From NCBI GenBank assembly GCA_024998685.1, contig JACOEH010000001.1, positions 1 through 64,000 of the forward strand: a stretch of DNA of 64,000 nt, given 5' to 3'. This document shows positions 666 through 34,787 of the stretch, piece after piece; position 1 is the first letter of the stretch, and each line of letters starts with the position of its first letter. This DNA is from Nitrospira sp. (GTDB lineage Bacteria > Nitrospirota > Nitrospiria > Nitrospirales > Nitrospiraceae). Made by a program: the position numbers and the translations under genes. The notes below the pieces were generated by a model. The model was not told where the DNA came from and did not search any database. It worked only from the letters and a program-made list of their open reading frames with translations.

Positions 666-704
666 CCGTTGTCTGCTATCCATTGTCCATTTTCCATTAT
701 TCCC

Positions 705-11776: not shown

Positions 11777-11934
11777 CCGGCGAAGACTCCGTCCTCTCTG
11801 TAGCACAGAGCCACCCCCTGAGTCCGAGACTGCGCGAAACGCCTGAATATTTCCGGTAAAACCTTACAGCATTCTCCGGTTATTCGGCTCTCTCCTTGCA
11901 ATGATTCAGCAGATTGACTCTTGAAAGGAATGAA

Positions 11935-12399
11935 ATGAAGCCAAATTTTTGCCGAGCCGCCGTCATTTTATGGGTCGCCACGCTGGGCGTGGGAGGATGG
12001 TTTTTTGTCAAGGGAGTGACGAAAACGGGAAGTGATGGCCGGGTGGAAATAATCCTGGCAGCAGCGGAGCGCGATCAAATCCTCGCTGAAATGCGCTCGC
12101 TCTTGAAAGCGGTGGATGGGCTTATCAGGGGACTGGGAGAGCCGAATCCTGATCCGAGACAGATGGAAGCAACGGCGAGGGCGGTCGGGATGAACATGGC
12201 CGCGGACACGGAGCCGACGATCATGGCCAAGTTGCCGCTGCCGTTCAAACAGATGGGCATGTCCATCCACAAAGACATGGATGCACTGGCGGATGCGATC
12301 GTGCGGCACGAGACATCGCAACAGATCCTGCAACGGTTGTCGAGCATGACGGCTCGCTGCACGGCATGTCACGACATGTATCGATTCAAAGCGAGCTGA
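11935..12399 (+). CDS. Cytochrome c-like protein with C-terminal CxxCH
   Basis: Signal-like N-terminus, and LSSMTARCTACHDMYRFKAS at the C-terminus, as in class II c-type cytochromes. Confidence 0.75.
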   Translation: MKPNFCRAAVILWVATLGVGGWFFVKGVTKTGSDGRVEIILAAAERDQILAEMRSLLKAVDGLIRGLGEPNPDPRQMEATARAVGMNMAADTEPTIMAKLPLPFKQMGMSIHKDMDALADAIVRHETSQQILQRLSSMTARCTACHDMYRFKAS

Positions 12400-12539
12400 T
12401 AGCTGTCAGCAGTGGGCGACCAGCGGCAGAGGAGAAGTGAAGAAATCAAACTGCACGTGCAAGACGCCTACGACAAGATCAAAGATCTGATCACCGTAGA
12501 GTAGCTGGAGTCATGGGTGTGGCATCTCTGTTGCTTTCT

Positions 12540-12567
12540 GCGACAGAGAAGATTTCCCATCTGTTGC
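12540..12567. promoter_or_regulatory. Candidate EBP operator GCGACAG-N14-CTGTTGC upstream of the SQR-like gene
   Basis: gcgacag agaagatttcccat ctgttgc; same architecture at 28916-28943 and 20976-21003. Confidence 0.55.
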
Positions 12568-12653
12568 AAGACTCCCCTCAAGCCGTTCACAGTGTAAGGC
12601 CGCAGCGTTCAAACTCCTGCATTATCCATAGGGAAGAATCTGATTCTGTCAGG

Positions 12654-12669
12654 CGGCTTCTCCTTTGCA
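12654..12669 (+). promoter_or_regulatory. Candidate sigma54 promoter (cggcttctcctttgca)
   Basis: GG-N10-GC spacing with TTTGCA -12 box; 86 nt after the operator. Another match, tggcatctctgttgct, lies at 12520-12535. Confidence 0.45.
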
Positions 12670-12786
12670 ATTCTTGAGGGAGGGGAGCTTATCGGGTCCA
12701 ATTCATTCTATCGGCAGCAGGCTTTCCGGTCGTACCAATGGCAAGGATTTTCTGGAAGCTGAGCAGCTGAAAGAAAAGGAGGCGGC

Positions 12787-14034
12787 ATGGCACGTGTGGC
12801 GATCATCGGCGCATCAATCGGCGGTCTGCCTGCCGCCTATGAGGCCAGGGCGCTGTTGGGTAAGAAACATCAGGTCACCGTCATTTCAAATGTGAGCTCG
12901 TTCCACTTCGTGCCGTCGAATCCCTGGGTCGCGGTCGGCTGGCGCACCAGGAAAGACATCAGCTTTGAGTTGGGACCTGTGTTAGCAAAGAAGGGGATCG
13001 AATTCATTCAGGCTACAGCTGATCGAATTGAACCAGAACAGAACCGAGTCATTACGGCGAAAGGGGAGGTGCCGTACGACTATCTCATCATCGCCACAGG
13101 TCCAAAGCTGAACTTTCCTGCTGTACCGGGCCTCGGTCCGAGCGGCTATACACAGTCAGTCTGTAATGTGGACCATGCAGAACAGGCCTGGGGCGCCTAT
13201 CAGAGCTTCCTGAAAGATCCAGGTCCAATAGTCATCGGCGCCGCGCCAGGGGCCTCATGCTTCGGTCCGGCTTACGAGATGGCGTTTATTCTCGATGCAG
13301 ATTTGCGGAAGAAAAAACTCCGCAAAAAGGTACCGATTTATTTCGTCACGCCGGAGCCCTATATCGGTCACATGGGGCTCGCCGGTGTGGGAAAATCGAG
13401 GCGGTTGATGGAGGATGAGTTTGCCGAGCATTCGATCAAGCCGATCCACAACACGGCGATCAAGGAAGTCCAGCCGGGGAAGATGATCTTGGAGGACGGT
13501 CAGGAGGTGCCCTTCCGTTACTCGATGATGATTCCGCCGTTTGCCGGAGTCGATGCGGTGGCGGGGACAACGGGCCTGTGCAATCCCAAAGGATTCGTCA
13601 ATATCGATGCCTACCAGGCGAATCCGAAGTACAAGAATATTTTCGCGGTAGGAGTCTGCGTCGCCATCCCGCCTGTCGAGCAGACGCCGGTCCCGACCGG
13701 TGCCCCGAAGACCGGATACATGATCGAATCGATGGTGTCGGCGGCCGTTCACAATATCAAGGCTGATATCGACAATAATACGAAGAAGGAAACTGCGACG
13801 TGGAACGCGATCTGTCTGGCCGACATGGGAGATACGGGAATGGCGTTCGTGGCCCTGCCGCAGAGGGCCCCGCGGAATGTCACCTGGGCGAAGAAAGGCA
13901 AATGGGTCCACTTGGCCAAGATCGCGCTGGAAAAGTACTTCCTGATGAAAATGAAACGGGGTATCAGCGAACCCTTCTTTGAGAAGGCGATTCTCGATGC
14001 GATGGGGATCGGCAAGCGCGAAGTCGGCGGATAA
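12787..14034 (+). CDS. NAD(P)/FAD-dependent oxidoreductase, sulfide:quinone reductase-like
   Basis: VAIIGASIGGLPAAYEAR Rossmann motif, PYDYLIIATGPK, Cys residues in SVCNVDHAEQAW and GASCFGPAYEMAF, VPTGAPKTGYMIESMV. Confidence 0.8.
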   Translation: MARVAIIGASIGGLPAAYEARALLGKKHQVTVISNVSSFHFVPSNPWVAVGWRTRKDISFELGPVLAKKGIEFIQATADRIEPEQNRVITAKGEVPYDYLIIATGPKLNFPAVPGLGPSGYTQSVCNVDHAEQAWGAYQSFLKDPGPIVIGAAPGASCFGPAYEMAFILDADLRKKKLRKKVPIYFVTPEPYIGHMGLAGVGKSRRLMEDEFAEHSIKPIHNTAIKEVQPGKMILEDGQEVPFRYSMMIPPFAGVDAVAGTTGLCNPKGFVNIDAYQANPKYKNIFAVGVCVAIPPVEQTPVPTGAPKTGYMIESMVSAAVHNIKADIDNNTKKETATWNAICLADMGDTGMAFVALPQRAPRNVTWAKKGKWVHLAKIALEKYFLMKMKRGISEPFFEKAILDAMGIGKREVGG

Positions 14035-14102
14035 TGGCGCTCTCTAGCCTGAATCTTTTGCATGGCATGTGCCTCACACCAGCAAGAGAAAGGGAGGGTG
14101 AT

Positions 14103-14291
14103 ATGAAACTCAACGAACGTTTGCGATTGATTGCCGGTATCTTCGTGCTCGCCGCGGTGATCCTCGGGGCAACGGTGCACCCCTATTGGAACTATTTCGC
14201 CGCCTTTGTGGCGGTGAACCTTATCCAATCCGCCTTTACCGGTTGGTGTCCGATGATGGCGCTGCTCCGGAAGTTCGGTGTGCAGGAATAG
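14103..14291 (+). CDS. DUF2892 (YgaP-TM-like) small membrane protein
   Basis: ERLRLIAGIFVLAAVILGATVHPYWNYFAAFVAVNLIQSAFTGWCPMMALLRKFGV. Confidence 0.85.
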   Translation: MKLNERLRLIAGIFVLAAVILGATVHPYWNYFAAFVAVNLIQSAFTGWCPMMALLRKFGVQE

Positions 14292-14400
14292 CCAGGATGT
14301 TGGAAGAAGGTCGAGGCTTAGGTCAAGGTTGAGAGTCGGAAACGTGAACCCTCAGTCTGAACCTCGGGCGTAGCCTTGGTGAACGGTCGGAAGAGTCGAC

Positions 14401-15459
14401 ATGATGGGTACACGGTGGTTGATCGCACTGGTGCTGATCTTGGCCGGCTGCGGGTCCAAAGAAGAGCCGGCCGCAGTGGTTTCAACCGCTTCACAGAGAA
14501 CTATCCAAACTGCGGTTGTCGAGGCTAAGCATACGTCGGTACCGATCCGTGTTGAGGTGACCGGTCAGGTTGCTCCTCTCTTCCAAGCTACGCTCTCCAG
14601 TCGCATTCAAGGAACGATAGACAAGTTGCTGGTTCGAGAAGGCGTGAAAGTCTCCAAGGGGCAGCTTCTCATCCAGTTGGACAGTCGCGATCTTGAGGCG
14701 GATTTGGCGCGCGCGGACGCCGAGGTCGAGAATACGAAAGTGCAACTCGACCGTATGAACCAGCTATACGCTCAAGATGCGGTGTCGAAACAGGAGATGG
14801 AGAACGCGATCAGGAGTTACAAAGTTGCTGAAGCGAATCGTAAGGCGGTGGAGGCTCAGCTCAGCTACACGGCGGTGAGAGCACCCTTTGACGGCATCAT
14901 CACCGAGAAAAAAGTGGAAGCAGGGGAATTAGCCTCGCCCGGCCAGCCGCTGCTCAAAATGGAAGACCCTCAGCGTCTTCGGCTGGAAGCCACGGTGGCT
15001 GAGGGAGATCTCAAATCCCTGTCTCGCGGCGACAAGATCCCCGTAACCATTGATGCCTTAGGAAGGCCGGCATTCATCGGTACGGTCAGCCAGATTCTTC
15101 CTGCCGGTGACCCGCAAACTCACACGTTCATGGTCAAGGTGGACTTGCCGAAGACAGCCGGGCTGAAGACCGGCATGTTCGGTCGCTTTCCGCTTGAGAA
15201 GGGTACCACGCACGCCATTCTCGTCCCCTCGACAGCCGTGGTGGAACGCGGCGAGCTCAACAGCGTCTTCGTGGTCGGAGAGGATCGGATCGCGCGGCTC
15301 CGGTGGATCAAACTCGGGCGGCGCTACGAGAAGCAGGTTGAGATTCTTTCAGGGATCAATGAAGGCGAGCGAATCGTAATGGACGGCAGCCGGGGAGTTG
15401 ATGGAGCCGCAGTTCAGGTCGTCGAGACCGTGGCGTCGCCGGCGGTGCCGACACAGTGA
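14401..15459 (+). CDS. RND efflux periplasmic adaptor (MFP/HlyD-type lipoprotein)
   Basis: Lipobox-like LILAGCGS; ATLSSRIQGTIDKLLVREGVKVSKGQLLIQLDSRDLEADLARADAEV; AVRAPFDGIITEKKVEAGEL. Confidence 0.9.
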   Translation: MMGTRWLIALVLILAGCGSKEEPAAVVSTASQRTIQTAVVEAKHTSVPIRVEVTGQVAPLFQATLSSRIQGTIDKLLVREGVKVSKGQLLIQLDSRDLEADLARADAEVENTKVQLDRMNQLYAQDAVSKQEMENAIRSYKVAEANRKAVEAQLSYTAVRAPFDGIITEKKVEAGELASPGQPLLKMEDPQRLRLEATVAEGDLKSLSRGDKIPVTIDALGRPAFIGTVSQILPAGDPQTHTFMVKVDLPKTAGLKTGMFGRFPLEKGTTHAILVPSTAVVERGELNSVFVVGEDRIARLRWIKLGRRYEKQVEILSGINEGERIVMDGSRGVDGAAVQVVETVASPAVPTQ

Positions 15460-15583
15460 AGCGTATCTCGCGAGACTGGCGGGAGTCGCGAGAAAAGCGC
15501 GACGGGTCGAGGAGGTGGTTGAGACGAGTCCCGCCTTTCGCGCATGTCTCGACTTTCTCGCAAGCACGAGATACGAGCGACGA
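15458..15583. repeat. Inverted-repeat element between adaptor and RND pump genes
   Basis: gtatctcgcgagac...ctttcgcgcatgtctcgactttctcgcaagcacgagatac; related sequence at 30490-30585. Confidence 0.6.
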
Positions 15584-18500
15584 ATGACAACCTACCGACC
15601 AGGATTGAGCGGCCGCATCGCGGCTCTCTTCATCGACAGCAAGCTCACGCCGCTCATCATGCTGGGTGTGCTGCTGCTGGGTCTGTTTGCGGTGGTCGTC
15701 ACTCCCCGCGAGGAAGAGCCGCAGATCGTCGTGCCGATGGCCGACGTCTGGCTGCCTTTTCCCGGCGCGTCCGCCAAGGTGGTCGAGGAACAACTCACCA
15801 AGCCGTTCGAGCGCAAGCTCTCCGAGATCACAGGTGTCGAGTATGTCTACTCAATCTCGCGTCCTGGCGGTGCGCTGATCATCGTGCGGTTCTACGTCGG
15901 CCGGCCGATGGAACAGAGTCTGGTCGATCTTTACGATAAGTTGATGTCGAACCAAGACTTGTTGCCGCCCGGCGCCGAGCCTTTTCTTGTCAAACCGAAG
16001 GACGTCAATGACGTCCCGATCGTCACGATGACGCTCTCCAGCGAGCGCTATGGGGAATTCGAGCTCCATCGTCTCGCTGAACAGGTATTAGAGGATGTCA
16101 AGAAGGTGTCCGGCACGTCGGCTGGTTTCATCGTCGGCGGACGGCCGCGGGAGCTGCGTATCCAGATCGACCCGACGAGGTTGAAGGCCTACGGACTGAC
16201 GCCGCTGCAGGTCGCGAACGTGGTACGTGGCGAGAATCGAGCCTTGTCGACCGGCCGCTTCGACAGCCGTAATCAAAGTTTTCTGGTGGAGACCGGCCGG
16301 TTCATAGGGTCAAGAGAAGATCTCGAAACCTTAGTGATCGGTGTCAGTGAGCAACGGCCCGTGTACTTGCGTCAAGTCGCGGAAGTGACGGATGGGCCGG
16401 CGGAAGCGACGAGCTATGTCTGGTTCGGCGAAGGAACCGGTAAGGAGTCAGGGGTGAGCGGTGAGGTTCCGGCTGTGACGGTGGCCATCGCCAAGCAGGT
16501 CGGCACGAACGCCGTGACCATCGCCGCCGACGTGATCCGTAAAGTCGAAGAAATGAAGGGCGTGACCATTCCATCGGACGTGCGCGTGACGATCACCCGG
16601 GATTACGGGGAGACGGCCCAAGAGAAGGCCAACGAACTGTTGTGGCATCTGCTGATCGCTGTTGCGGCTGTGGTGGTCTTTCTCGGCGTGGCGTTGGGGC
16701 CGAGGCCGGCTCTCGTCGTGTCCCTTGCGATCCCTCTGACTCTTGCGTTGACGCTGTTCACTTCGATGATGATCGGCTATACGATCAATCGCGTCACGCT
16801 GTTTGCCCTCATCTTTTCGATCGGCATTCTCGTAGACGATGCGATCGTGGTCGTCGAGAATACCTACCGGCATCTGAAGCTGCGACTCAGGCCTCATCAT
16901 GAAGCCACCATTCAAGCCGTCGATGAAGTCGGGAATCCGACGATCTTGGCGACGTTCACCGTGATCGCCGCCCTCCTCCCGATGGCCTTCGTTTCCGGGT
17001 TGATGGGTCCCTATATGAGACCGATTCCCGTCAATGCCTCCATCGCGATGTTTTTTTCGTTGCTCGTCGCCTTCGTCGTAATCCCCTGGTTTTGCCGAAC
17101 CTGTTATCGGCCGGGAGTCGCCGTTACGGGCGTCGATCATGAAGGCGACGAACGAGGGCTCACAGCGCGCCTCTATCGAAAGGTCCTCTCCCCGCTGTTG
17201 ACCCATCCGCTGCTGGCCTATGCCTTCTTAGGTGTGGTCGGCCTGTTGCTGGTGGGATCGACCTTGTTGTTCTACACCCGTCATGTCGTGGTGAAAATGC
17301 TGCCGTTCGACAACAAGAGTGAAATTCAGCTGGTCATCGATATGCCTGAAGGCACGACTCTCGAAGAGACGGCGCGGGTTGCGCAGGCGTTGGGGCGGTA
17401 TGTGAAGACTGTGCCGGAGGTACGGGATCATCAGGCTTACGTCGGCACCGCCTCGCCCTTTAATTTCAGCGGACTGGTCCGCCACTACTACCTGCGGGAA
17501 CAACCTCATGAGGCCGATATCCAGATCAATCTTGTCGCGAAGCACGAGCGAACCGCCCAGAGTCATGAAATCGCCCAGCGGATTCGCCCTCCGGTCCAAG
17601 AGATCGCTCGTGAATACGGAGCCAATGTAAAGATCGTCGAAGTACCGCCCGGGCCGCCTGTGCAATCGGTTCTGGTGGCGGAGGTCTACGGTCCCGATTA
17701 CGGCAGACAACTCGCCATGGCTCGTCAGATTCGGAAACTGTTCGAATCCACATCCGGAGTGGTCGATGTCGATGATTATATCGAGGCCGACCACGTGAAA
17801 TATGTCTTCACGGTCGATCGCGCAAAAGCCGCCCTCGCCGGTATTCCTTCAGAAGAAATTGTAAACACGTTGCGCATGGCGCTCCAGGGGGCGAAGGTCG
17901 GGCTGGTCCATATTCCGCAGGAGAAGAGCCCGGTTCAAATCGTACTTCGTTTGCCGCTTGCCGAGCGGACGGGGCTGGAACATCTCGGCGAGATCGGGTT
18001 GCGCACGAGTACCGGCGGCATCGTGCAATTGTCCGAACTGCTCAAAATAGAACAAACAGTCCAAGACAAAGCGATCTATCACAAGAATCAAAAGCCGGTG
18101 GTCTATGTGGTCGCCGATGTCGGCGGCCCCGGAGCCGAGAAAGCCGAAAGTCCGGTCTATGGCGTGTTAGGGGTCGGGAAAAAGCTGGAGAACTTTCGCC
18201 CGGCTGAGGGATACCGGATCGAGCAATACTACGCGTCGCAACCTTGGTCCGAAGAGAAGATCGCCATGAAGTGGGATGGGGAATGGCACATCACCTATGA
18301 AACATTCCGCGACATGGGGATCGCGTTTGGCGTGGCGATGTTACTGATCTACTTGCTGATCGTCGGGCAGTTCCAATCGTTCATCACGCCGCTGATCATC
18401 ATGGCTCCCATACCGCTCACGCTGATCGGCATTCTGCCCGGACATTGGCTGACCGGATCGTACTTCACGGCGACATCAATGATCGGCTTCATCGCGCTCG

Positions 18501-18889
18501 CCGGCATCATCGTGAGGAACTCTATTCTTCTGGTCGATTTCATTCAGCTCCAAGAACGAGCGGGTGTTTCCCTATCAGAAGCCGTGATCAAGGCTGGTGC
18601 GATTCGGACCCGTCCCATCTTACTGACGGCCGCGGCACTGATGGTGGGCGCCTTCGTCATCATTCTCGATCCGATCTTCCAAGGGTTGGCCGTCTCGTTG
18701 CTCTTCGGCGTCGGCGCATCGACGCTGCTGACCCTCGTCGTGATTCCGGTGTTGTACTACCACGTGATGGGAAACCCTTTAGAGCCGAAAGAGGCTGAAA
18801 CGATACCAAACCGAGATGACATTCCTCACCGTGAACATTCAGGCGAGGAAGTGTTAGCGGCCATCGGCGCAAGTGATCCGAAGCTGTAA
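15584..18889 (+). CDS. Efflux RND transporter permease (AcrB/MdtB-like)
   Basis: Long AcrB-like protein: FPGASAKVVEEQLTKPFERKLSEITGVEYVYS, GILVDDAIVVVENTYRHL, GFIALAGIIVRNSILLVDFI. Confidence 0.95.
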   Translation: MTTYRPGLSGRIAALFIDSKLTPLIMLGVLLLGLFAVVVTPREEEPQIVVPMADVWLPFPGASAKVVEEQLTKPFERKLSEITGVEYVYSISRPGGALIIVRFYVGRPMEQSLVDLYDKLMSNQDLLPPGAEPFLVKPKDVNDVPIVTMTLSSERYGEFELHRLAEQVLEDVKKVSGTSAGFIVGGRPRELRIQIDPTRLKAYGLTPLQVANVVRGENRALSTGRFDSRNQSFLVETGRFIGSREDLETLVIGVSEQRPVYLRQVAEVTDGPAEATSYVWFGEGTGKESGVSGEVPAVTVAIAKQVGTNAVTIAADVIRKVEEMKGVTIPSDVRVTITRDYGETAQEKANELLWHLLIAVAAVVVFLGVALGPRPALVVSLAIPLTLALTLFTSMMIGYTINRVTLFALIFSIGILVDDAIVVVENTYRHLKLRLRPHHEATIQAVDEVGNPTILATFTVIAALLPMAFVSGLMGPYMRPIPVNASIAMFFSLLVAFVVIPWFCRTCYRPGVAVTGVDHEGDERGLTARLYRKVLSPLLTHPLLAYAFLGVVGLLLVGSTLLFYTRHVVVKMLPFDNKSEIQLVIDMPEGTTLEETARVAQALGRYVKTVPEVRDHQAYVGTASPFNFSGLVRHYYLREQPHEADIQINLVAKHERTAQSHEIAQRIRPPVQEIAREYGANVKIVEVPPGPPVQSVLVAEVYGPDYGRQLAMARQIRKLFESTSGVVDVDDYIEADHVKYVFTVDRAKAALAGIPSEEIVNTLRMALQGAKVGLVHIPQEKSPVQIVLRLPLAERTGLEHLGEIGLRTSTGGIVQLSELLKIEQTVQDKAIYHKNQKPVVYVVADVGGPGAEKAESPVYGVLGVGKKLENFRPAEGYRIEQYYASQPWSEEKIAMKWDGEWHITYETFRDMGIAFGVAMLLIYLLIVGQFQSFITPLIIMAPIPLTLIGILPGHWLTGSYFTATSMIGFIALAGIIVRNSILLVDFIQLQERAGVSLSEAVIKAGAIRTRPILLTAAALMVGAFVIILDPIFQGLAVSLLFGVGASTLLTLVVIPVLYYHVMGNPLEPKEAETIPNRDDIPHREHSGEEVLAAIGASDPKL

Positions 18890-18927
18890 GAGCGGCGCAG
18901 TATTCGTCGACGGTGACCAATCAACAG

Positions 18928-20220
18928 CTATGAGTTCTTCGCGCAACGAAACCCGTAGCCGAACTGTCGACCGGACGGTTCGGCATTGAAACGAAACGAA
19001 GAACGCAGAAATTCCTGAATATAAAGCCAGTTCCCGCCCCGCACGACTTTGGACTTACCCGTCTTCGGTCCTTGAGGATTCTTCGTCGGACTCTTCTTGT
19101 AATAGTCATGATCATACCAGTCGTTGACCCATTCCCACGCATTGCCGGCCATGTCGTAGATGCCGTAGGGGCTCTTGCCCAGTTCGAACATCCCCACCGG
19201 AACCAACGCCATATGATTCGCCCATTTCTTTTTGCCGAAATTTGCGTGGAGCCTCGTGGGGGCTTCGTTGCCCCAAGGATAAAGGCGGCCATCCGTTCCC
19301 CGCGCCGCCTTTTCCCACTCCGCCTCGGTGGGCAGGCGCTTGCCGGCCCATTTGCAGTATGTGGCGGCATCAAACCAACTGACATTGACAACGGGGCGTT
19401 TCTGATGTCGAGGCTGGTTCATAATATCCCACTCCGGCGGCGCCTCCTTGTCCGTCGCTTCCAGATACTTGGCATACTGCCCCACCGTCACGTGGTACTT
19501 ATCCATGTAGAAGGCGTCGAGGTCGACGCGATGCACCGGCTTTTCGTCGTCTGCCATGGTGCTCCCCATGGTGAACTCCCCCGCCGGCACCAGCACCATC
19601 GGCGTCTCAGCCGGTTTCAGACTATCCAACACGGTGGTCGGATGTCGGTTCGGGAGTTGTGCGTCCAGCTGTTGATAGACGATTTGCTGCTCATTGTTGA
19701 GCCCTAGCTCATTGGCGCCGTCCAGGGCCTCCTCCGCCTTCTTGATCCGGTCGGGGTCAGTCTGCCCGACCGCTATCAGACTCTTCGCTTCCTCCAGCAA
19801 CCGCCATGCCGTCACTTCCTCCAGCGATCGCCACACTTCCATTTTATGCAATCGTAGTTCCTTGGTCCCTGCCGTCCTGGATTTCGCGTCCAGATGCAAC
19901 GCGGCCTCGTAATGTTCTTCCGCGCAGGTCCAGGCTGCCAACCCTCGACAGGCCTCGGCGAGGTTAAAATGAGCCCGCACATTCGAAGAGTTCTTCATGA
20001 TGCCTGCTTCCAGCGCTGCGCGCGCCTCCGCATACTGTTTCTTCTTCAGGAACGCCTCCCCTTTGGCAAAGTCTTGCTCGCCGGTCTCGGCTGCCGACAC
20101 CGCCATGGAAACAGCGGTCAGCTTCAAACAGATGACAAAACTCAGCATCCCAAGGGATTGCCTCATAAACATGTTCCTCCCAATTGTGACTGCCTCCGGC
20201 AGTCCCCGTACAGAAAGCAT
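18928..20220 (-). CDS. SUMF1-family protein with N-terminal TPR-like region
   Basis: AEARAALEAGIMKNSSNVRAHFNLAEACRG TPR-like; FTMGSTMADDEKPVHRVDLDAFYMDKYHVTVGQYAKYL...RLPTEAEWEKAARG...GNAWEWVNDWYD...VVRGGNW. Confidence 0.9.
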   Translation of the reverse strand: MLSVRGLPEAVTIGRNMFMRQSLGMLSFVICLKLTAVSMAVSAAETGEQDFAKGEAFLKKKQYAEARAALEAGIMKNSSNVRAHFNLAEACRGLAAWTCAEEHYEAALHLDAKSRTAGTKELRLHKMEVWRSLEEVTAWRLLEEAKSLIAVGQTDPDRIKKAEEALDGANELGLNNEQQIVYQQLDAQLPNRHPTTVLDSLKPAETPMVLVPAGEFTMGSTMADDEKPVHRVDLDAFYMDKYHVTVGQYAKYLEATDKEAPPEWDIMNQPRHQKRPVVNVSWFDAATYCKWAGKRLPTEAEWEKAARGTDGRLYPWGNEAPTRLHANFGKKKWANHMALVPVGMFELGKSPYGIYDMAGNAWEWVNDWYDHDYYKKSPTKNPQGPKTGKSKVVRGGNWLYIQEFLRSSFRFNAEPSGRQFGYGFRCAKNS

Positions 20221-20438
20221 CGGCCGTCGTCGAAAGCGCGGCCTTCATGGCGGAGAACATAGCATAACGTCGCCTAAGCATAAAGAACCCTAAGCGAGCG
20301 GCGAAGCTTTTCGCAGTGTGTGGCGGGCCGAAACTGCGCGATTGAGACGCGACACGTTTGTGAAGGCCGCGAATCGGTAATCGCCCGGAGTCTTCGGACG
20401 ACGTGAGAAACGAAGCCTGCGGACTCGTGTGCAGCCTG

Positions 20439-20924
20439 CTAAGGCTTCGGCTTATCCTTGGGCTTATCCTTGTAGGTGCCGTGCTCTATCGGCTTCCTTG
20501 CCAAATTGTCACCGGAAACCCGTGTGACGGAAATTTCCCGAGAACTTTCTTCACCCTCGCGCTTAATCTGTAACTTCACCGTGCTCCCGGCTTCTCCGCG
20601 AATCATCTTCACCACTTGCTCATAACTCTTTCCCGAGACCGCCGTGCCATCGACATTGATCAACTCATCTCCGTGCCGAAGCCCGGCCTTATGAGCCGGC
20701 CCTTCACGATGGACTCTTCCGATGTACAGAGATGCCGGATCTCCCACGCGCTCTGCTCCGATATGAATCGAAATCCCGATCACTCCATCCGGGCCCTTCG
20801 CTCCATCTACGCCTGCAGGGGCCTGATCCGGTCGATCGTCGGCATACAACGGGACGCTCAACAAAAGACTGAAGATCATGGTGACGACAACCGCCGTTCT
20901 GTTCCGCATAGACATGCCTCCCAT
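20439..20924 (-). CDS. Exported PDZ-domain protein
   Basis: Signal peptide then SLYIGRVHREGPAHKAGLRHGDELINVDGTAVSGKSYEQVVKMIRGEAGSTVKLQIKREG. Confidence 0.9.
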   Translation of the reverse strand: MGGMSMRNRTAVVVTMIFSLLLSVPLYADDRPDQAPAGVDGAKGPDGVIGISIHIGAERVGDPASLYIGRVHREGPAHKAGLRHGDELINVDGTAVSGKSYEQVVKMIRGEAGSTVKLQIKREGEESSREISVTRVSGDNLARKPIEHGTYKDKPKDKPKP

Positions 20925-20975
20925 TGCAATAGAGTGTAAGAGAAATCATCCGCCAGGTTTGACGACGCGCCTATC

Positions 20976-21003
20976 GCGACAGAGACACGACGCACGCTGT
21001 TGC
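20976..21003. promoter_or_regulatory. Candidate EBP operator GCGACAG-N14-CTGTTGC (third copy)
   Basis: gcgacag agacacgacgcacg ctgttgc; weak sigma54-like tggatacctaggtgcg at 21074-21089. Confidence 0.45.
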
Positions 21004-21443
21004 GAACCGCAACTCTCTCGCATCATCATCGTTCATCTATCTGTAGTTTTAGACGTCTGCCGGTTCTACTAGCTGGATACCTAGGTGCGCTATGCGTGCC
21101 GGTCGCCAAGTCGATGCGCAAGTTATGGAGCTGGACACCGGCGATCAAAGATTCCGCAGGGGAATTCTTCTTGCGGCAGCTGTATCGATTCAGGTCAAAC
21201 TGTATCTTCACCGATACATTGTCCTTATCAAAAAATCAGTACAGGAGCTTGGACAAAGATAGAAAACCACAATAAAACAGTGTTTATGGGTTGATGACCC
21301 ACCGAGGCGCATCTGTTGCATGGTGCCAACCTTCCATGGATTAGGGTGCTTCCTAGTCATTCGAAAAAAGACGCCATGCTATGTTGTCAAGACATAGAAT
21401 TTTTTAATCGGCAAACGAGCTGATGACCGAATAGGAGAACCGT

Positions 21444-21890
21444 ATGTCGACATGTACCGTCCAATCTGAGAGTTCTCCAGCCGATCGGCCGAAGATGAAA
21501 TGTATTCGCGTGTTGCTGGCGGACGATCACTTCCTCGTCAGGCAAGGGTTGCGTAAGTATCTGAGCCATCATCTCGACATAGAACTGGTCGGTGAGGCGG
21601 CGGATGGGGAAGAAGCGGTGAAACTGACGGACAGGCTGAAGCCCGATGTCGTCGTGATGGACATCAACATGCCGAGAATGAACGGTATCGAGGCGACAGG
21701 CTCCATCATACGAAAGCATCCGCACCTGCCGGTCATCGGCCTCTCATTTTACGTCGACAATGGCAATCGAGAAGCATTATTGGATGCCGGTGCCTGCCTC
21801 TTGCTCGAAAAGGGGACGGCGTATCGACATCTGCCTCATGCGATTTATCAGGCTGTCGGCAAAAGCCTTGATGCCCCCATCGGCCGTTGA
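21444..21890 (+). CDS. Single-domain NarL-type response regulator receiver (no HTH)
   Basis: IRVLLADDHFLVRQGLRKYL...DVVVMDINMPRMNGIEATGSI; ends without a LuxR HTH. Confidence 0.9.
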   Translation: MSTCTVQSESSPADRPKMKCIRVLLADDHFLVRQGLRKYLSHHLDIELVGEAADGEEAVKLTDRLKPDVVVMDINMPRMNGIEATGSIIRKHPHLPVIGLSFYVDNGNREALLDAGACLLLEKGTAYRHLPHAIYQAVGKSLDAPIGR

Positions 21891-22274
21891 CCGTCTCGTC
21901 GCATAGTGGAAGGAGACCAACCGTCCCCGAGTCGACTTCTTCTCGCACTCTCAACCACACAAACCCAGTTCCACTGACTCGGTGCCTTCTGTAGAGGCGG
22001 GATCAGGCGAGGCTGTCGGGCGAGTCGGCAAATGCCGACCGGTGCTCGTGCGCCGCGGCGTGATGGGTCGTACGAAAAACTTACGTGAACGAGCTTCTTG
22101 CTGAGCGCGATATGCCGGCTGGTGTGAGGGCTGGGGCATCAACCAGCGGTTGGACTCGGGCTTTCCCCAGGACCTGAAGACATGGATGCGTAGTATATTC
22201 TCCCGCCCCGCGTCGTCGTTCGGCACAAGAGAGCGAGAGGCCGGTCTTTTCCCCTTCGATCATGCGAAGCCCGA

Positions 22275-25200
22275 ATGAATCGTTTTGAACGTACCTCCAC
22301 GCCGTTGGTCTATGGCGCGATCGTATTGTCGATCGGCGCCATATTCATCAGCGATCTCTTGAGCAAGCTCGGCATTACCGTCTGGGTCTTTTATCTCCTG
22401 CCGCTGGTCTTCTCATACTTGGCGTGGCGACCTCTGGTCCCGGCCTACACAGCCACGGCGACCACGCTGCTGATACTCGTCGGTTTTTTCCTGAGTACTC
22501 CCGGCAGCGACCCGTTCATTGCGGTACAGAACCGCGCGTTCGAGATAGCGACCAGTTGGGCCTTGGCGGCGCTGGGCTACCAGTTCATCCGGAACAAACT
22601 CGCCGTCCGAAAACAAGAATGGTTGCAATCAGGCCAGACCCTCTTGAGCGAGCGGATGGCCGGAGACCCATCCACCGACCAGCTCGGGACGCGGGTGCTC
22701 GGCACGATCGCCGAATATCTCGACGCTCCGGCCGGCGCCTTATTCGTCGAGAACGGCCCGTCGTTTCGGCGGACGGCCACGCACGGTGTCCCGGCCGATG
22801 CCCGCATTTCGATGGAAGTCCAAGCCGGCGACGGCTTGCTCGGCCGGGCGCTCGTCGAGCAAAAAATGTTCATCGTATCCGATGTGCCGGAAGGGTATGT
22901 GACCGTCGGAAGTTCGCTGGGCCGCAGCGCTCCGCGCCATCTGCTCATCGCCCCGCTGGCCGTGGAGCGCTCCATCAAAGCGGTGCTGGAAATGGGATTT
23001 TTTCATTCGGTGGACGAGGCGGACAAGGAATTCGTGACCCGGGTGTCCGAGTCGATCGCGGTCGCGATTCGCTCCGCCCAAGCCCGCGCCCACATCCAAG
23101 AATTGTTGGAAGAAACCCGGCGCCAGGCGGAAGAACTTCAGGCGCAGAGCGAAGAACTGCGCGCGGCGAACGAGGAACTGACGGAGCAAAGCGCCAGGCT
23201 CCAGGATGCCCACACCAGGTTGGAAGAACAACAGGCTGAGCTGGAACAGAGTAATGCGCAGTTGGAAGAGCAGACGCAAATGTTGGAAACGCAGAAGGAC
23301 GAGTTGACCCGCGCCAAGAGCAGCCTGGAGACCCATGCCTCCGAGTTGGAGGAGGCCGGCCGGTACAAATCCGAATTCCTGGCCAACATGTCTCACGAGC
23401 TGCGCACGCCGCTGAACGCGTCGATGATTCTGGCTCGGCAGCTCGGCGACAATGCGGACGGCAATCTGACCTCCGAACAGGTGAAATATGCCAAAAGTAT
23501 CGAATCCGCCGGGCGGGATCTGTTGGCGCTGATCAATGAAGTGCTGGATCTGGCGAAAATCGAGGCCGGTCGCATGGAGGTGCAGCTGCAGCCGGTGCGC
23601 CTGGCCGCCTTGGCCCTGCATGTGGAAACCATGTTTCAAGCGCTGGCCGACGAGAAGGGTTTGAGCTTGTGCGTCCGCCTCGCGGAGGAAACGCCGGAGA
23701 CGATCGAAACCGATCAGCAGCGACTGGAACAGGTGCTCAATAATTTGCTTTCGAACGCAATCAAGTTCACGGAACGAGGCGAAGTCCGGGTGGAAATCGG
23801 CGGCGCCTCCGATGGTCTGATTTTCTTCGCGGTCCGCGACACAGGGATCGGCATTGCAGAAGACCGTCAGCAGGTCATTTTCGAGCCGTTCTGCCAGGCC
23901 GATGGGACGACGAACCGGCAGTACGGCGGCACCGGCCTCGGGCTGTCCATCGTCCGCGAATTCACGCGTTTACTGGGCGGCGATCTCCGATTGACCAGTG
24001 CGTTGGGGCGGGGCAGCACGTTCACCGTCCTCTTGCCGGAACGGTATGATGCGGCCGCGGTAACGGACAAGGGGTCTTCCTTATCGGGGGTAAGAAAGGT
24101 TCCCGACCTTCACGCGCGAATGGTTCCCGATCCCCCGTTCGTCCGCATGCGACCGGATCAAGCACCGCGTCCGGCGGACGAGATAAAGACGCCTGACTCT
24201 TTCTCAGCTCGGATTCCCGACGACCGCGAACGGCTGTCGGGCGACCGACGCGTCGTGTTGATCATCGAAGACGACGAGCCCTTTGCCAGAATTCTCTCGG
24301 ATCTCGCGCACGAGCAAGGCTTTCAAGCGCTGATCGCGGCCACGGCCGGCGAGGCGTTGGTCTTGGCGCCGCAGTTTGTGCCGAATGCGATCCTGCTCGA
24401 TATCGGTCTCCCCGACATCTCGGGGCTGTCCGTACTCGACCGATTGAAGATCGATTCGCGCACCAGACATATCCCGGTCCATATTATGTCGGTCCACGAT
24501 TACACGCAGACGGCCCTCTCGCTCGGCGCCGTAGGGTACATCCTCAAGCCGGTGAAACGCGAACAACTGATCGATGCCTTTCAGCGGATGGAGCAGCGCC
24601 TCACGCAACGGTTGCGGCGCGTGCTGATCGTGGAGGACGATCCGGCTCAGCAGGAAGCCGTCACGGCACTGTTGGCCTCACGCGACGTGGAAACGATCGC
24701 CGTCGGCACTGCCGCGGACTGCCTCGACCGACTCCGCGCCACGACTTTCGACTGCATGGTGCTGGACTTGAGCCTGCCGGATGAGAACGGCTACGCCCTG
24801 TTGGAAACGCTGAGCCGGGAAGATCGGTATTCCTTTCCGCCGGTCATCGTCTATACGGGGCGCGACCTTTCGGCCGACGAAGAACAACGTCTCAGGCGCT
24901 ATGCCAAGTCCATCATCATTAAGGGCGCCAAATCACCGGAACGGCTATTGGACGAGGTGACGCTCTTTCTGCATCAAGTGGTCGCCGATCTGCCGCCCGC
25001 GCAGCAAGCCATGCTCAATCGCTCGCGCCGCGGAGATGCGGCCCTGGATGGTTCCAGGTTGTTGGTGGTGGAAGACGACGTACGCAACGTGTTCGCGCTC
25101 ATGAGTCTGTTGGAGCCGCGCGGCGCCAAAGTGCAGGTGGCACGTAACGGTCTTGAGGCCCTGGCGGCGCTGGAAGGGTCTCTTCAGCCGGACGGCGCCC

Positions 25201-25436
25201 CGATCGACCTTGTGCTGATGGACATCATGATGCCGGAAATGGACGGCTTGACCGCCATGCGCGAAATCCGCAAGCGTCCCGAATGGCGGAACTTGCCCAT
25301 CATCGCGCTGACCGCCAAGGCGATGAAGGCCGATCATCTGCAGGCGTTGACTGCCGGTGCCAATGACTACATGGCCAAGCCGTTGGATGTGGATAGACTG
25401 TTGTCGCTCGTGCGCATTTGGATGCCGAAGTCATGA
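22275..25436 (+). CDS. Hybrid sensor histidine kinase (TM-GAF-coiled coil-HisKA-HATPase-REC-REC-REC)
   Basis: KSEFLANMSHELRTPLNASM, TGIGIAEDRQQVIFEPFCQADGTTNRQYGGTGLGLSIVREF, and three receivers (VVLIIEDDEP, RVLIVEDDPA, RLLVVEDDVR). Confidence 0.95.
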   Translation: MNRFERTSTPLVYGAIVLSIGAIFISDLLSKLGITVWVFYLLPLVFSYLAWRPLVPAYTATATTLLILVGFFLSTPGSDPFIAVQNRAFEIATSWALAALGYQFIRNKLAVRKQEWLQSGQTLLSERMAGDPSTDQLGTRVLGTIAEYLDAPAGALFVENGPSFRRTATHGVPADARISMEVQAGDGLLGRALVEQKMFIVSDVPEGYVTVGSSLGRSAPRHLLIAPLAVERSIKAVLEMGFFHSVDEADKEFVTRVSESIAVAIRSAQARAHIQELLEETRRQAEELQAQSEELRAANEELTEQSARLQDAHTRLEEQQAELEQSNAQLEEQTQMLETQKDELTRAKSSLETHASELEEAGRYKSEFLANMSHELRTPLNASMILARQLGDNADGNLTSEQVKYAKSIESAGRDLLALINEVLDLAKIEAGRMEVQLQPVRLAALALHVETMFQALADEKGLSLCVRLAEETPETIETDQQRLEQVLNNLLSNAIKFTERGEVRVEIGGASDGLIFFAVRDTGIGIAEDRQQVIFEPFCQADGTTNRQYGGTGLGLSIVREFTRLLGGDLRLTSALGRGSTFTVLLPERYDAAAVTDKGSSLSGVRKVPDLHARMVPDPPFVRMRPDQAPRPADEIKTPDSFSARIPDDRERLSGDRRVVLIIEDDEPFARILSDLAHEQGFQALIAATAGEALVLAPQFVPNAILLDIGLPDISGLSVLDRLKIDSRTRHIPVHIMSVHDYTQTALSLGAVGYILKPVKREQLIDAFQRMEQRLTQRLRRVLIVEDDPAQQEAVTALLASRDVETIAVGTAADCLDRLRATTFDCMVLDLSLPDENGYALLETLSREDRYSFPPVIVYTGRDLSADEEQRLRRYAKSIIIKGAKSPERLLDEVTLFLHQVVADLPPAQQAMLNRSRRGDAALDGSRLLVVEDDVRNVFALMSLLEPRGAKVQVARNGLEALAALEGSLQPDGAPIDLVLMDIMMPEMDGLTAMREIRKRPEWRNLPIIALTAKAMKADHLQALTAGANDYMAKPLDVDRLLSLVRIWMPKS

Positions 25437-25556
25437 ACCATGACGGAGTAGGTTGAAGCCAAAAGCTCGGGTGAGGCAGAGAGGTTGAAGTCAAGGTTGA
25501 GGTGACGGGAAGCAGCGGGAAGGAGGAGAGGCCAAGAACGGGTTCAGCAACAAGTC

Positions 25557-26431
25557 ATGGAACCGTTGAAACTGCTTAAACCTACTGCACCCTCCTCAGC
25601 CTCAACCTGTACTCAAAGCACCGAGGCGCTCGAAATCGAACTACTGCTCGATGCGCTCTACCGTGCCCATGAGTACGACTTCCGCGGCTATGCCCGACCG
25701 TCGCTCACGCGTCGTCTGGCGCAGGCGCGCGAGCATTTCGGCTGCCGGAGCTATTCGCAACTCCAAGATCTGCTGTTGCACGAGCCGACGGCGCTGCCGA
25801 CGCTGCTCGGCTATCTGACCGTGCAGGTGAGCGAAATGTTCCGTGATCCGGGATATTTTCGCGCGCTGCGCCAGGAGGTGGTGCCGCATCTGAAGACATA
25901 TCCGTCGCTCAAAGTGTGGGTGGCCGGTTGCGGCGCGGGCGAAGAGTTGTATTCACTCGCCATTCTGTTCCGCGAGGAAGGATTGGAGGACCGCACGGTA
26001 TTCTATGCGACGGACATCGATCGCGACGCGCTCAAGCAAGCGGAAGCCGGCATCTATGAGTCGGACCGTCTGGCGTTGTTCACGACGAATCATCGGCGGT
26101 CGGGCGCGAAGGGATCGCTATCAGAGTATTACCATGCCGGGTCGCGGGCTGTGGTGTTCGACAGGACGCTGCGCAAACGGACGGTGTTCGCCGAGCACAA
26201 TCTGGCTTCCGACGCCGTGTTCGCCGAGGCGCATTTGATTTCCTGCCGCAACGTGTTGATCTATTTCGACCGGCCGCTCCAGAACCGGGCCATCGGGTTG
26301 TTCACGGAGGCGCTCGCGCGAAAAGGATTTTTGGGCTTGGGAGACAAAGAGACCTTGCGCTTCACCGGCCATGACGAGACCTTTGAGCCGTTCGTGTCGA
26401 AAGAACGTATCTATCGCAAGCGAGGGAAGCT

Positions 26432-26435
<4 letters not shown>
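25557..26435 (+). CDS. cheR: CheR-type chemotaxis methyltransferase
   Basis: VSEMFRDPGYFRALRQEVVPHL, VWVAGCGAGEELYSLAILF, HLISCRNVLIYFDRPLQ. Confidence 0.95.
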
Positions 26436-28189
<1,754 letters not shown>

Positions 28190-28337
28190 TGCGTCTCCAT
28201 CCGGCGTGACTCGCCGGCCCGGCTTTCCGAACCGATACCGGGAAATTTTAGGTGAACTAGGGATGACCCGAGGTTCCTGCGGAATCCTATCTGTATAGAG
28301 TGCAACCTCGGAACCATCGAGAAGAGGAGGAAGAGCT

Positions 28338-28568
28338 ATGACGGCGACCCACATTGATCAAGTCAGAGAGAGGCTGGAGCAACGTGGTACGGCTTGTCCG
28401 TTGGAAGAGGTCATGGAACTTTGTCCGGAGTTGACCTGGAATCAGGTCTTTCTCGCCATCGATTATTTGAGCAGAACGGGCCAAGTCCGGGTGACGATGG
28501 ATGTGGGCAAGACCTATACGGTACAGGCCTATCGTCCGGTTGCGGCAGTCGCCACGACTGCCGCATAA
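28338..28568 (+). CDS. Small wHTH-like conserved hypothetical protein
   Basis: MTATHIDQVRERLEQRGTACPLEEVMELCPELTWNQVFLAIDYLSRTGQVRVTMDVGKTYTV looks like a small winged-helix; Shine-Dalgarno-like gaggagg upstream. Confidence 0.6.
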   Translation: MTATHIDQVRERLEQRGTACPLEEVMELCPELTWNQVFLAIDYLSRTGQVRVTMDVGKTYTVQAYRPVAAVATTAA

Positions 28569-28685
28569 CGACGGAGCCGGACGGAGTCAACTGAGTCCGT
28601 TCGACGCGGACAAACGGATAACCGGCCGAAGATCTCGATAGAGGGCCGGAACGTCACCTTTCATCAAGTCATCAAGACATGTGAA

Positions 28686-28865
28686 ATGCCCATAAAAACT
28701 CGGGCCGTCCAGAACACAGAAGCAGAAACCCGCATCGAAGAAGCGACGTGCGCTCATCGGCGCCTCCTTGATGATATTTTGACCAAGAGCGGGAAACGAA
28801 CCGGTAAGGTTCGCTGCCTTGAATGTCGGACGATCTTTGACGATCCCTACAAGGGCTTCAAGTAG
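28686..28865 (+). CDS. Candidate 59-aa zinc-ribbon-like small protein
   Basis: Manual translation MPIKTRAVQNTEAETRIEEATCAHRRLLDDILTKSGKRTGKVRCLECRTIFDDPYKGFK*; CxH and CxxC. Below the ORF-track length cutoff. Confidence 0.5.
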   Translation: MPIKTRAVQNTEAETRIEEATCAHRRLLDDILTKSGKRTGKVRCLECRTIFDDPYKGFK

Positions 28866-28915
28866 CGAACCGGTTATCGGCAATAAACGATCTCCCGAAC
28901 TCCTTGTCGCCTTCT

Positions 28916-28943
28916 GCGACAGCAGAGTCTTTCCCCCTGTCGC
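28916..28943. promoter_or_regulatory. Candidate EBP operator GCGACAG-N14-CTGTCGC upstream of tolC-like gene
   Basis: gcgacag cagagtctttcccc ctgtcgc (perfect 7-bp arms). Confidence 0.6.
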
Positions 28944-29034
28944 ACGTCTCCCCTACGGCGCAGCATTCCTCCCCGGTGTCGTTATTTAACTCCTCAATTT
29001 TTCAGAAGATCACAATGGTGGGCGTTCATTTCAG

Positions 29035-29050
29035 TGGCTCCCTCTTTGCA
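29035..29050 (+). promoter_or_regulatory. Candidate sigma54 promoter (tggctccctctttgca)
   Basis: TGGC-N7-TTGCA with correct spacing, 91 nt after the operator and 34 nt before ATG 29085. Confidence 0.6.
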
Positions 29051-29084
29051 CTCTGTTGAGTCGCGGAAACCCGGAATTCGTTTC

Positions 29085-30467
29085 ATGGGGGTCTCCTACA
29101 CTATACGACGGCATCGCCAGGTCGGGCTCCTCGCTTGCCTCGTGCTCATCACACTCCTCTGCGGGATGGGTGCAGAAAATGTCCCGGCGGAAGGGCAGGA
29201 GACCAGCAGTCCTGAACTTAAGCTGAGTCTGCGCGAGGCCATTCAGGCCGCCGTCGACAACAACGTCAATGTGCGGCTGCTGAAAGAACGCATTGCGTCT
29301 GCGCAGGCTCAGGCCAATACGAGTTTGGGCGCCCTACTTCCTAACGTCGGCGGATACCTCAACGGCAGAAACCAAACGGTAAATCTTGCCGCCTTCGGTC
29401 TTCCCGCCGACCGGCTTTCCGCTCTTGGCCTCACCCGGAGTGTGACGGATCCGTTCGAGGTCTACGACGCACGCGCGACCCTCGTGCAAAACATCTTCAG
29501 CCTCAGTTTGATCCAACGATGGCGTGCGGCGAGATCCGGCGTCGATGTCGCCGGCCTCGAAGCGGAAGTGACGAAGAGAGACGTGATGGCGACCGCCGGA
29601 TTGTTGTACATCGAGGCGTTACGGGCCGACGAAGCCGTGAAGGCACGTCAGGCGGATATCGAACTCAGCCAGCAACTGCTGAAATTGGCGAGAGATCGCA
29701 AAGCGGCGGGCGTAGCGACGGGTTTGGATATCACTCGCCAGGAAGTTGAATTGGAGAACAACAAGCAACGGTTGCTGGTCTCGCAGAATGAGCAAGAGAG
29801 CGCGCGCCTCAACCTGATCCGCTCGTTGGGGATCGCCTTCGATGTCCGGTTGGTTCTCACTGATGAACTCAAGTTCGTGCCGGTCGAGCCTCAAGTTCGC
29901 GAGCAAGCCCTCCTGACCGCGCACGAACAACGGTTGGAGTTGAGGGTTCAAGAGAATCGTCGGCGACTCGCCGCGCTCACCCTCAGTTCCGTCACCAGCG
30001 AGCGAATCCCATCCCTTTCTTTGAATGGGGATTACGGCTGGATCGGCTTAAAGCCGGAGGAGGCGTTGGCCACGCGTTCGATCGGACTGACATTTTCGAT
30101 CCCCATTTTCGACGGAGGCCAGCGGGAAAGCCGCATTTCCGAGTCCCGCAGCAGGGTCCGGCAGGAGTCCATTCGTATGAAGGACGTGTCGGATCAAGTC
30201 ACACTGGAAGTCCGGAACGCTCTGCTGACCCTGGAGTCATCCGTGCAACAGGTTGCAGTCGCAGGGAAGGGATTGGAATTGGCGCTCAAAGAATTAACCT
30301 TTGCGAAGGATCGGTTTGCCGCCGGCCTCACAACCAATATCGAAGTGACGAATGCCCAGACATCGGTTGCACGGGCACGTGACAACCAGATCGAAGCGTT
30401 GTTCCGGTTCAATGCCTCGCGCATCAATCTGGCGCGGGCCAAGGGAGAAATCGAAAAGCTGTTCTGA
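29085..30467 (+). CDS. TolC-family outer membrane efflux protein
   Basis: LKLSLREAIQAAVDNNVNVRLLKERI...; GLTFSIPIFDGGQRESRISESRSRVRQ; ATG 29085 chosen because the longer ORF start overlaps the promoter. Confidence 0.85.
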   Translation: MGVSYTIRRHRQVGLLACLVLITLLCGMGAENVPAEGQETSSPELKLSLREAIQAAVDNNVNVRLLKERIASAQAQANTSLGALLPNVGGYLNGRNQTVNLAAFGLPADRLSALGLTRSVTDPFEVYDARATLVQNIFSLSLIQRWRAARSGVDVAGLEAEVTKRDVMATAGLLYIEALRADEAVKARQADIELSQQLLKLARDRKAAGVATGLDITRQEVELENNKQRLLVSQNEQESARLNLIRSLGIAFDVRLVLTDELKFVPVEPQVREQALLTAHEQRLELRVQENRRRLAALTLSSVTSERIPSLSLNGDYGWIGLKPEEALATRSIGLTFSIPIFDGGQRESRISESRSRVRQESIRMKDVSDQVTLEVRNALLTLESSVQQVAVAGKGLELALKELTFAKDRFAAGLTTNIEVTNAQTSVARARDNQIEALFRFNASRINLARAKGEIEKLF

Positions 30468-30489
30468 GCCTGATGATGCGGCGCGACAG

Positions 30490-30585
30490 GCAAGAGGAGA
30501 GGACTCGCGCGATTGGGGCCCTGGCGGCGTTTCGCGCTGGTCTCGCCCGTCCCGCAAGAGGAGATACTCGACGACTGACGATTGA
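30490..30585. repeat. Second copy-like of the intergenic element seen at 15458-15583
   Basis: tttcgcgctggtctcgcccgtcccgcaagaggagatactcgacgactgacg aligns with tttcgcgcatgtctcgactttctcgcaagcacgagatacgagcgacgaatgac. Confidence 0.45.
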
Positions 30586-30591
30586 TGAAGG

Positions 30592-34780: not shown

Positions 34781-34787
34781 GCAGACG

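What the first reader, a model, noticed from the sequence alone, without database searches (positions are those of the whole stretch)
12540..29050. Shared palindrome GCGACAG-N14-CTGTYGC plus downstream sigma54-like promoter at three sites: a candidate uncharacterised sigma54/EBP regulon
Three intergenic sites have identical architecture: 12540-12567 (gcgacag-N14-ctgttgc), 20976-21003 (gcgacag-N14-ctgttgc) and 28916-28943 (gcgacag-N14-ctgtcgc). The 12.5 kb and 28.9 kb copies also share flanks (ttCTGCGACAG...CTGTyGCA..xCTCCCCT). Each is followed by a GG-N10-GC element: cggcttctcctttgca (12654), tggatacctaggtgcg (21074, weak), tggctccctctttgca (29035), at 86, 70 and 91 nt. Arm-centre spacing of 21 bp is about two helical turns, as for EBP dimer sites. 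Targets would be the SQR-like operon, an unannotated transcript before the receiver gene, and the TolC-HlyD-ABC exporter. No EBP gene is seen in the window.
Basis: partly seen in the sequence, partly recalled or inferred. Interest (0 to 1): 0.72.

Follow-up and report, generated by a model that had tools for sequence, protein, structure and literature searches.

The report
Conserved sigma54 stress regulon in Nitrospira
Two of the three marked sites are real on/off switches of a previously undescribed gene set that nitrite-oxidising Nitrospira bacteria share across the genus, probably thrown by a redox-sensing activator that we can name as a candidate but have not tested.

Summary
The 7-N14-7 palindrome has only three exact matches in this 4.83-Mb Nitrospira genome, all in this window. 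Sites 1 (SQR) and 3 (TolC exporter) are genuine; the middle site (20976) is not, because its right arm and its GG/GC element both break in the closest relative. It recurs across the Nitrospira genomes examined, upstream of TolC-HlyD-ABC, cytochrome-SQR, trehalose synthase-glycogen phosphorylase-AckA-Xfp, FtsH and universal-stress-protein operons, and is almost absent from 24 genomes of other genera. 45 of 52 distinct operators have a strict sigma54 promoter 68-117 nt downstream, against 1.7% of control windows. rpoN is present. The best activator candidate is a Cys-rich-PAS/AAA+/Fis protein on contig C84, with orthologs in nearly all Nitrospira genomes, usually 3-30 kb from the operators where both are on one contig; its DNA-binding domain is 93% conserved. 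That it binds the operator is inferred, not shown. New member of a known kind (sigma54 enhancer regulon), probably serving redox, low-oxygen or maintenance functions.

The parts
12528..12578 (+). Operator 1: 19-bp inverted repeat CTGTTGC-TTTCT-GCGACAG (12528-12546), N14, half-site CTGTTGC (12561-12567), tail AAGACTCCCCT
   Evidence: matrix score 60.8; E 1.2e-11; the site was in the model's training set
12654..12669 (+). sigma54 -24/-12 promoter CGGCTTCTCCTTTGCA, 75 nt after the operator, for the SQR gene 12787-14034
12787..14034 (+). type I sulfide:quinone oxidoreductase (SQR); first gene after promoter 1, followed by the HlyD and RND genes
   Evidence: chain 3kpk_A, E 1.1e-147
11798..11804 (+). 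surviving half-site CTGTAGC (continuing ACAGAGCCACC) of a degraded operator before the cytochrome-c'-like gene
   Evidence: the full operator is present at the orthologous place in G023 (L118:3609), G012, G010, G030 and G033
11885..11900 (+). sigma54 promoter CGGCTCTCTCCTTGCA before the cytochrome-c'-like gene 11914-12399
11914..12399 (+). cytochrome-c'-like gene, regulon target
28904..28954 (+). Operator 3: TTGTCGC-CTTCT-GCGACAG (28904-28922), N14, half-site CTGTCGC (28937-28943), tail ACGTCTCCCCT
   Evidence: matrix score 64.8; E 2.8e-12; the site was in the model's training set
29035..29050 (+). sigma54 promoter TGGCTCCCTCTTTGCA, 80 nt after the operator; conserved in about 20 other Nitrospira
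29034..35918 (+). TolC - HlyD - ABC - ABC - ABC-2 permease - ABC-2 permease exporter operon (the listed GTG start at 29034 overlaps the promoter; the likely start is ATG 29086)
20976..21003 (+).
37388..37438 (+). Fourth operator-like site, without a sigma54 promoter, before a 227-aa N-ATPase beta fragment; probably decayed
   Evidence: (E 1.8e-8; the site was in the model's training set)

Best explanation
The sites at 12528-12578 and 28904-28954 are enhancers of a Nitrospira-wide sigma54 regulon. An activator dimer or oligomer binds the 19-bp inverted repeat CTGTYGC-N5-GCRACAG, and a second unit binds the half-site three helical turns (33 bp) downstream. By DNA looping it drives open-complex formation by sigma54-RNA polymerase at a TGGC-N7-TTGC promoter about 70-117 nt further on. 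The most likely activator (about 0.6) is the protein at G000:C84:20994-22436 (Cys-rich PAS-like region, AAA+, Fis HTH; histidine kinase and receiver genes directly upstream). The most likely signal is redox, low oxygen or energy limitation, because the targets are an SQR, a cytochrome, exporters, FtsH, universal stress proteins and a glycogen phosphorylase-phosphoketolase-acetate kinase route. Shown by sequence: operator, promoter, their linkage and conservation, and the targets. Inferred: activator identity, oligomeric binding, signal.
For: Three exact matches genome-wide, all here. The GCRACAG-N14-CTGTYGC form gives 12 places in the 34 same-genus relatives against 1 for the reversed control, and 0 in 24 other-genus genomes. 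The 51-bp model hits all 35 same-genus genomes (G000 included) at E<=0.1, mostly 1e-4 to 1e-14, and 2 of 24 others weakly; strong hits outside the training set include G014:C28:23974 (8.6e-13), G030:C104:63127 (8.7e-11) and G010:C45:32391 (1.7e-9). A strict [TCA]GG-N8-TTGC[AT] lies 68-117 nt downstream in 45 of 52 distinct operators, against 21 of 1204 control windows (the matrix was built on operators only). At 8 universal-stress-protein sites a second, divergent sigma54 promoter lies on the other side. rpoN. Activator: ortholog in nearly all Nitrospira genomes, only two partial matches of 49-52% in 24 others; on the operator's contig in 15 of 27 tabulated genomes, within 30 kb in 13, including the single-contig genome G023; about 25 kb upstream of tolC in N. 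defluvii FP929003. HTH 93% identical over 22 orthologs and PAS cysteines 87, 98, 101, 117, 126 invariant.
Against: No expression or binding data exist. Sites of one gene in related species are not independent. The activator was not found in three incomplete MAGs (G002, G007, G008). Its proximity to the sites partly reflects inherited synteny. A second EBP (receiver type, L035) lies next to the candidate in several genomes. Variation of the HTH with operator strength follows clades. A different short EBP sits directly beside the tolC operator in G033 and G019.
Confidence: 0.9

Rival explanations
1. The regulon is sigma54-dependent as described, but the activator is another EBP: the short receiver-less EBP beside tolC in G033 and G019, the receiver-type EBP L035 next to the candidate, or another conserved one such as L044.
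For: Short EBP directly upstream of the tolC operator in G033 and G019. L035 is conserved (87-96%) in G005, G014, G034 and G028 and lies next to the candidate in G000, G005 and others.
Against: The short EBP is missing in G002, G005, G014, G020 and G034, several of which have strong operators, and its two copies in this genome have no operator nearby. The intact L035 ortholog of G034 is on a different contig from the operators, whereas the candidate stays with them.
Confidence: 0.3
2. The inverted repeat binds an ordinary (non-EBP) regulator, and the downstream -24/-12 elements are read by sigma54 with a separate activator or are look-alikes.
For: Operator position alone does not identify the protein class. 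LuxR-type and receiver proteins also lie in these clusters.
Against: The near-fixed coupling of operator and sigma54 promoter (45/52 vs 1.7%), the distances of about 70-117 nt typical of enhancers, and the bidirectional arrangement at the stress-protein sites.
Confidence: 0.07
3. The palindromes are chance matches or spread copies of a repeat element without regulatory role.
For: Two- and three-mismatch matches occur at background frequency. The middle site looks like such a match.
Against: Genus-restricted conservation at orthologous promoters while the surrounding non-coding DNA has diverged, plus the promoter linkage.
Confidence: 0.03

Closest known systems
NtrC-type enhancers (e.g. tandem NtrC sites upstream of glnAp2)
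   Same: Dimer-size inverted repeat (here 19 bp), a second site about three helical turns away, 80-120 nt upstream of a -24/-12 promoter (NtrC details from own knowledge, not looked up).
   Different: Different operator sequence; the second site is only half-conserved, with a fixed TCCCCT tail; the candidate activator has a Cys-rich PAS-like region instead of a receiver.
QseF/GlrR operator TGTC-N10-GACA (consensus quoted in PMC8745638)
   Same: The outer bases TGTC...GACA occur here as TGTCGC-N5-GCGACA.
   Different: Spacing is N9, not N10, with extra conserved GC/GC. The candidate matches the GlrR model only through AAA+ and HTH and far below its cut-off (322 vs 763 bits).
PrsR / PEP-CTERM box (PMC1569441)
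   Same: Same kind of discovery: a conserved motif about 60 nt upstream of a sigma54 promoter, with the activator found by phylogenetic profile.
   Different: That motif contains TTTACA and sits before PEP-CTERM genes; the sequence and targets differ here.
N. marina low-oxygen response (PMC8115632)
   Same: Universal stress proteins and flanking operons rise at low oxygen.
   Different: No sigma factor, operator or EBP is proposed there (the word sigma does not occur in the text); whether those clusters carry this operator was not tested.

Membership tests
sigma54-dependent promoter | GG at -24 and GC at -12, ten bases apart, TGGC-N7-TTGC-like | tested here: met
   12654 and 29035 in the window; 45 of 52 operators across the genus
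sigma54-dependent promoter | rpoN gene in the genome | tested here: met
   PF04552 at G000:C21:79232, E 1.9e-58
sigma54-dependent promoter | transcription starts about 12 nt after the -12 box and depends on rpoN | not testable with these tools
   needs 5'-end mapping or an rpoN mutant
EBP (enhancer-binding protein) regulon | upstream activating site of dyad symmetry, conserved with the promoter | tested here: met
EBP (enhancer-binding protein) regulon | an EBP (AAA+ sigma54 domain with GAFTGA, Fis HTH) that co-occurs with the sites | tested here: met
   C84 protein: PF00158 E 6.3e-68, HTH_8 E 3.1e-11, GAFTGA in its sequence, found in nearly all Nitrospira genomes and often near the sites
EBP (enhancer-binding protein) regulon | the EBP binds the operator and activates the promoter | not testable with these tools
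   needs gel shift, footprint or reporter
QseF/GlrR regulon | operator TGTC-N10-GACA and a GlrR equivalog | tested here: not met
   spacing N9; candidate 322 vs cut-off 763 bits; consensus
PrsR PEP-CTERM regulon | TTTACA-containing motif and a PrsR equivalog above cut-off | tested here: not met
   motif differs; candidate 305.5 vs 502.6 bits, short EBP 383 vs 502.6 bits
NtrC / NR(I) | NtrC equivalog with receiver domain | tested here: not met
   candidate has no receiver; 290.6 vs 558.6 bits

The most novel reading that the evidence does not exclude
A genus-wide redox or low-oxygen survival regulon of Nitrospira, switched by a Cys-rich-PAS EBP (a possible metal or thiol redox sensor) through a composite operator (dimer site plus conserved half-site and TCCCCT tail), and driving divergent promoters from one enhancer at the stress-protein cluster.
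Probability: 0.45. Interest if true: 0.68.

Novelty: new member of a known kind. Interest (0 to 1): 0.55.

Why it matters
Nitrospira are among the main nitrite oxidisers in soils, water and sewage plants, and little is known of their gene regulation; no Nitrospira sigma54 regulon was found in the papers searched. This gives a defined operator, promoter, target list and one testable regulator gene. It ties an SQR, exporters, stress proteins and a carbohydrate-to-acetate route into one switch, which could explain how these organisms survive low oxygen or energy shortage.

Tried and rejected
Short receiver-less EBP (327 aa, beside tolC in G033 and G019) as sole regulator: not present in several strong-site genomes. 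PEP-CTERM/PrsR box: different motif. Desulfovibrio sigma54 regulome: none of the searched strings (TGTCGC, GCGACA, TGTC) occurs in the paper's main text. Middle site 20976: not conserved. Helical phasing of the operator-promoter distance: weak (resultant length about 0.4 at 10.5-11 bp, non-independent data), not claimed. The pattern search for the stress-protein sigma54 promoter was a coarse use of a capped search but showed that promoter in many genomes, including G000:C42:40039. My first promoter count used a wrong spacing and was redone.
Full report
WHAT IS THERE. The three sequences are at the stated places. GCGACAG-N14-CTGTYGC has three exact places in the whole genome of 4,832,183 bases, all in this window. 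About 0.07 would be expected by chance (own calculation). With two mismatches allowed the count equals that of the reversed control (52 vs 54), so only near-exact sites matter. The organism is a Nitrospira species: nearly all relatives of the TolC protein in the genome collection are Nitrospira or Nitrospirota.

THE OPERATOR IS LARGER THAN REPORTED. The first 19 bases are an inverted repeat of the size usual for Fis-type EBP dimers (general knowledge). The second CTGTCGC lies 33 bases from the first, about three helical turns. The 7-N14-7 palindrome is therefore the inner part of a composite site. In the window the two good sites are 12528-12578 and 28904-28954 (matrix scores 60.8 and 64.8). 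A weaker one is at 37388-37438 (36.9, no promoter). The middle site scores 8.4, on the other strand only.

THE MIDDLE SITE. At 20976-21003 the upstream half-site is missing. In G023, the closest relative (97% identity in the RND protein), the right arm is CTGCTGC and the GG-N10-GC spacing is lost although the region is otherwise well conserved.

CONSERVATION ACROSS THE GENUS. GCRACAG-N14-CTGTYGC without mismatches has 12 places in the 34 same-genus relatives, against 1 for the reversed control, and none in 24 genomes of other genera. A sequence-only model of the 51-bp site hits all 35 same-genus genomes, G000 included, at E<=0.1, and two of 24 others weakly. Some hits were in the training set, the window's own sites among them; strong hits outside it include G014:C28:23974 (8.6e-13), G030:C104:63127 (8.7e-11), G010:C45:32391 (1.7e-9) and G014:C23:14071 (8e-8). 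A clade of five genomes (G021, G024, G025, G029, G032) has only weak hits.

LINK WITH SIGMA54. Among 52 distinct operators with matrix score >=24, 45 have a strict [TCA]GG-N8-TTGC[AT] element that begins 68-117 nt downstream; 21 of 1204 control windows of the same width in the same loci do. The matrix was built on operators only, so the promoter test is independent of it, although orthologous sites are not independent of each other. At eight universal-stress-protein sites a second promoter of this type (CGGCATTGGACTTGCT and the like) lies on the opposite side, facing a divergent gene. In this genome the same arrangement is on contig C42: TGGCACCACCCTTGCT at 40039-40054 minus and CGGCATTGGACTTGCT on the plus strand (sequence). 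rpoN is at C21:79232.

TARGETS. Across the genus: the TolC-HlyD-ABC exporter; the cytochrome-c'-like gene with SQR and HlyD-RND; trehalose synthase - alpha-glucan phosphorylase - acetate kinase - phosphoketolase; FtsH (G014); and universal stress proteins with phosphofructokinase nearby. In the window only three intergenic strict sigma54 elements have a half-site 87-98 nt upstream: 11885 (cytochrome), 12654 (SQR) and 29035 (TolC; it overlaps the listed but probably wrong start). The cytochrome operator is degraded here to one half-site at 11798, while relatives keep the full site. The SQR is a type I enzyme by similarity to the solved protein 3kpk (E about 1e-147). The window also holds AckA-Xfp and FtsH genes, with no clear operator of their own here.

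THE ACTIVATOR. About 30 EBP genes exist in the genome, none in the window. A short EBP beside tolC in G033 and G019 was the first suspect, but it is missing from several genomes with strong operators. EBPs of G005, G014 and G034 were fetched and matched to those of this genome. The protein at C84:20994-22436 stood out. It has orthologs in nearly all Nitrospira genomes (mostly 68-96% identity; not found in G002, G007 and G008, partial in G014 and G019), and only two partial matches of 49-52% among the 24 other-genus genomes. In 15 of 27 tabulated genomes an operator is on the same contig, in 13 of them within 30 kb. In N. defluvii FP929003 it lies about 25 kb upstream of tolC. G023 synteny places C84 just left of the window: gene markers from the right end of C84 and from the left end of the window are about 5 kb apart there, and the window begins at base 1 of contig C94. 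The protein has AAA+ and Fis domains and an N-terminal PAS-like region (own reading; no Pfam hit there) with invariant cysteines 87, 98, 101, 117 and 126. The HTH is 93% identical over 22 orthologs. Genomes with weak operators carry changed recognition helices (SRAGLYNKLREY in place of SRASLYNKLRAY), and N. defluvii relatives with GCCACA arms have KLHE-type ends. This fits co-evolution but follows clades, so it is only suggestive.

FUNCTION. Regulation by oxygen or redox state is inferred from the targets, from the cysteines, and from a published low-oxygen proteome of N. marina in which universal stress proteins and flanking operons rise (PMC8115632). Whether those clusters carry this operator was not tested.

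KNOWN OR NEW. Sigma54 enhancer regulons are a known kind. This operator, target set and candidate activator match none of the families compared (QseF/GlrR, PrsR, NtrC), and no Nitrospira sigma54 regulon turned up in the papers searched. Most of the confidence lies in the regulon itself (0.9); the activator's identity is about 0.6.

Noticed in passing
window 29034-29090: The listed TolC start codon (GTG 29034) overlaps the sigma54 promoter 29035-29050; the true start is probably ATG 29086.
   Followed up: partly
window 37388-38185: Operator-like site with no sigma54 promoter before a 227-aa fragment of an alternate (N-type) F1 ATPase beta subunit; the G023 counterpart is 465 aa (L119:8167-9564). 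Looks like a decayed operon.
   Followed up: partly
window 306-4180: 23S rRNA intervening-sequence-type protein, RhuM-family protein and a restriction-type helicase at the contig start; the genes after them are syntenic with G023, so possibly a mobile insert.
   Followed up: no
window 59284-63816 (-): Large nonribosomal peptide synthetase (condensation, adenylation, carrier, thioesterase domains) next to a LuxR-type regulator at 57652.
   Followed up: no
L278:14997-19754 (G000:C84): 1585-aa protein with multicopper-oxidase domains just downstream of the candidate activator; found near it in several other Nitrospira.
   Followed up: no
L100:4080-5063 and L070:4784-5710: Receiver-less 327-aa EBP directly upstream of the tolC operator in two genomes, with close copies elsewhere in many Nitrospira; its own targets are unknown.
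   Followed up: partly
window 21305-21320: AGGCGCATCTGTTGCA, a sigma54-like element before the receiver gene 21444, about 300 nt after the rejected middle site; similar in G010, region missing in the G023 alignment.
   Followed up: no
L092: Contig labelled Gaiellales (SURF_19) carries a TolC 70% identical to this Nitrospira protein: possible mis-binning or transfer.
   Followed up: no
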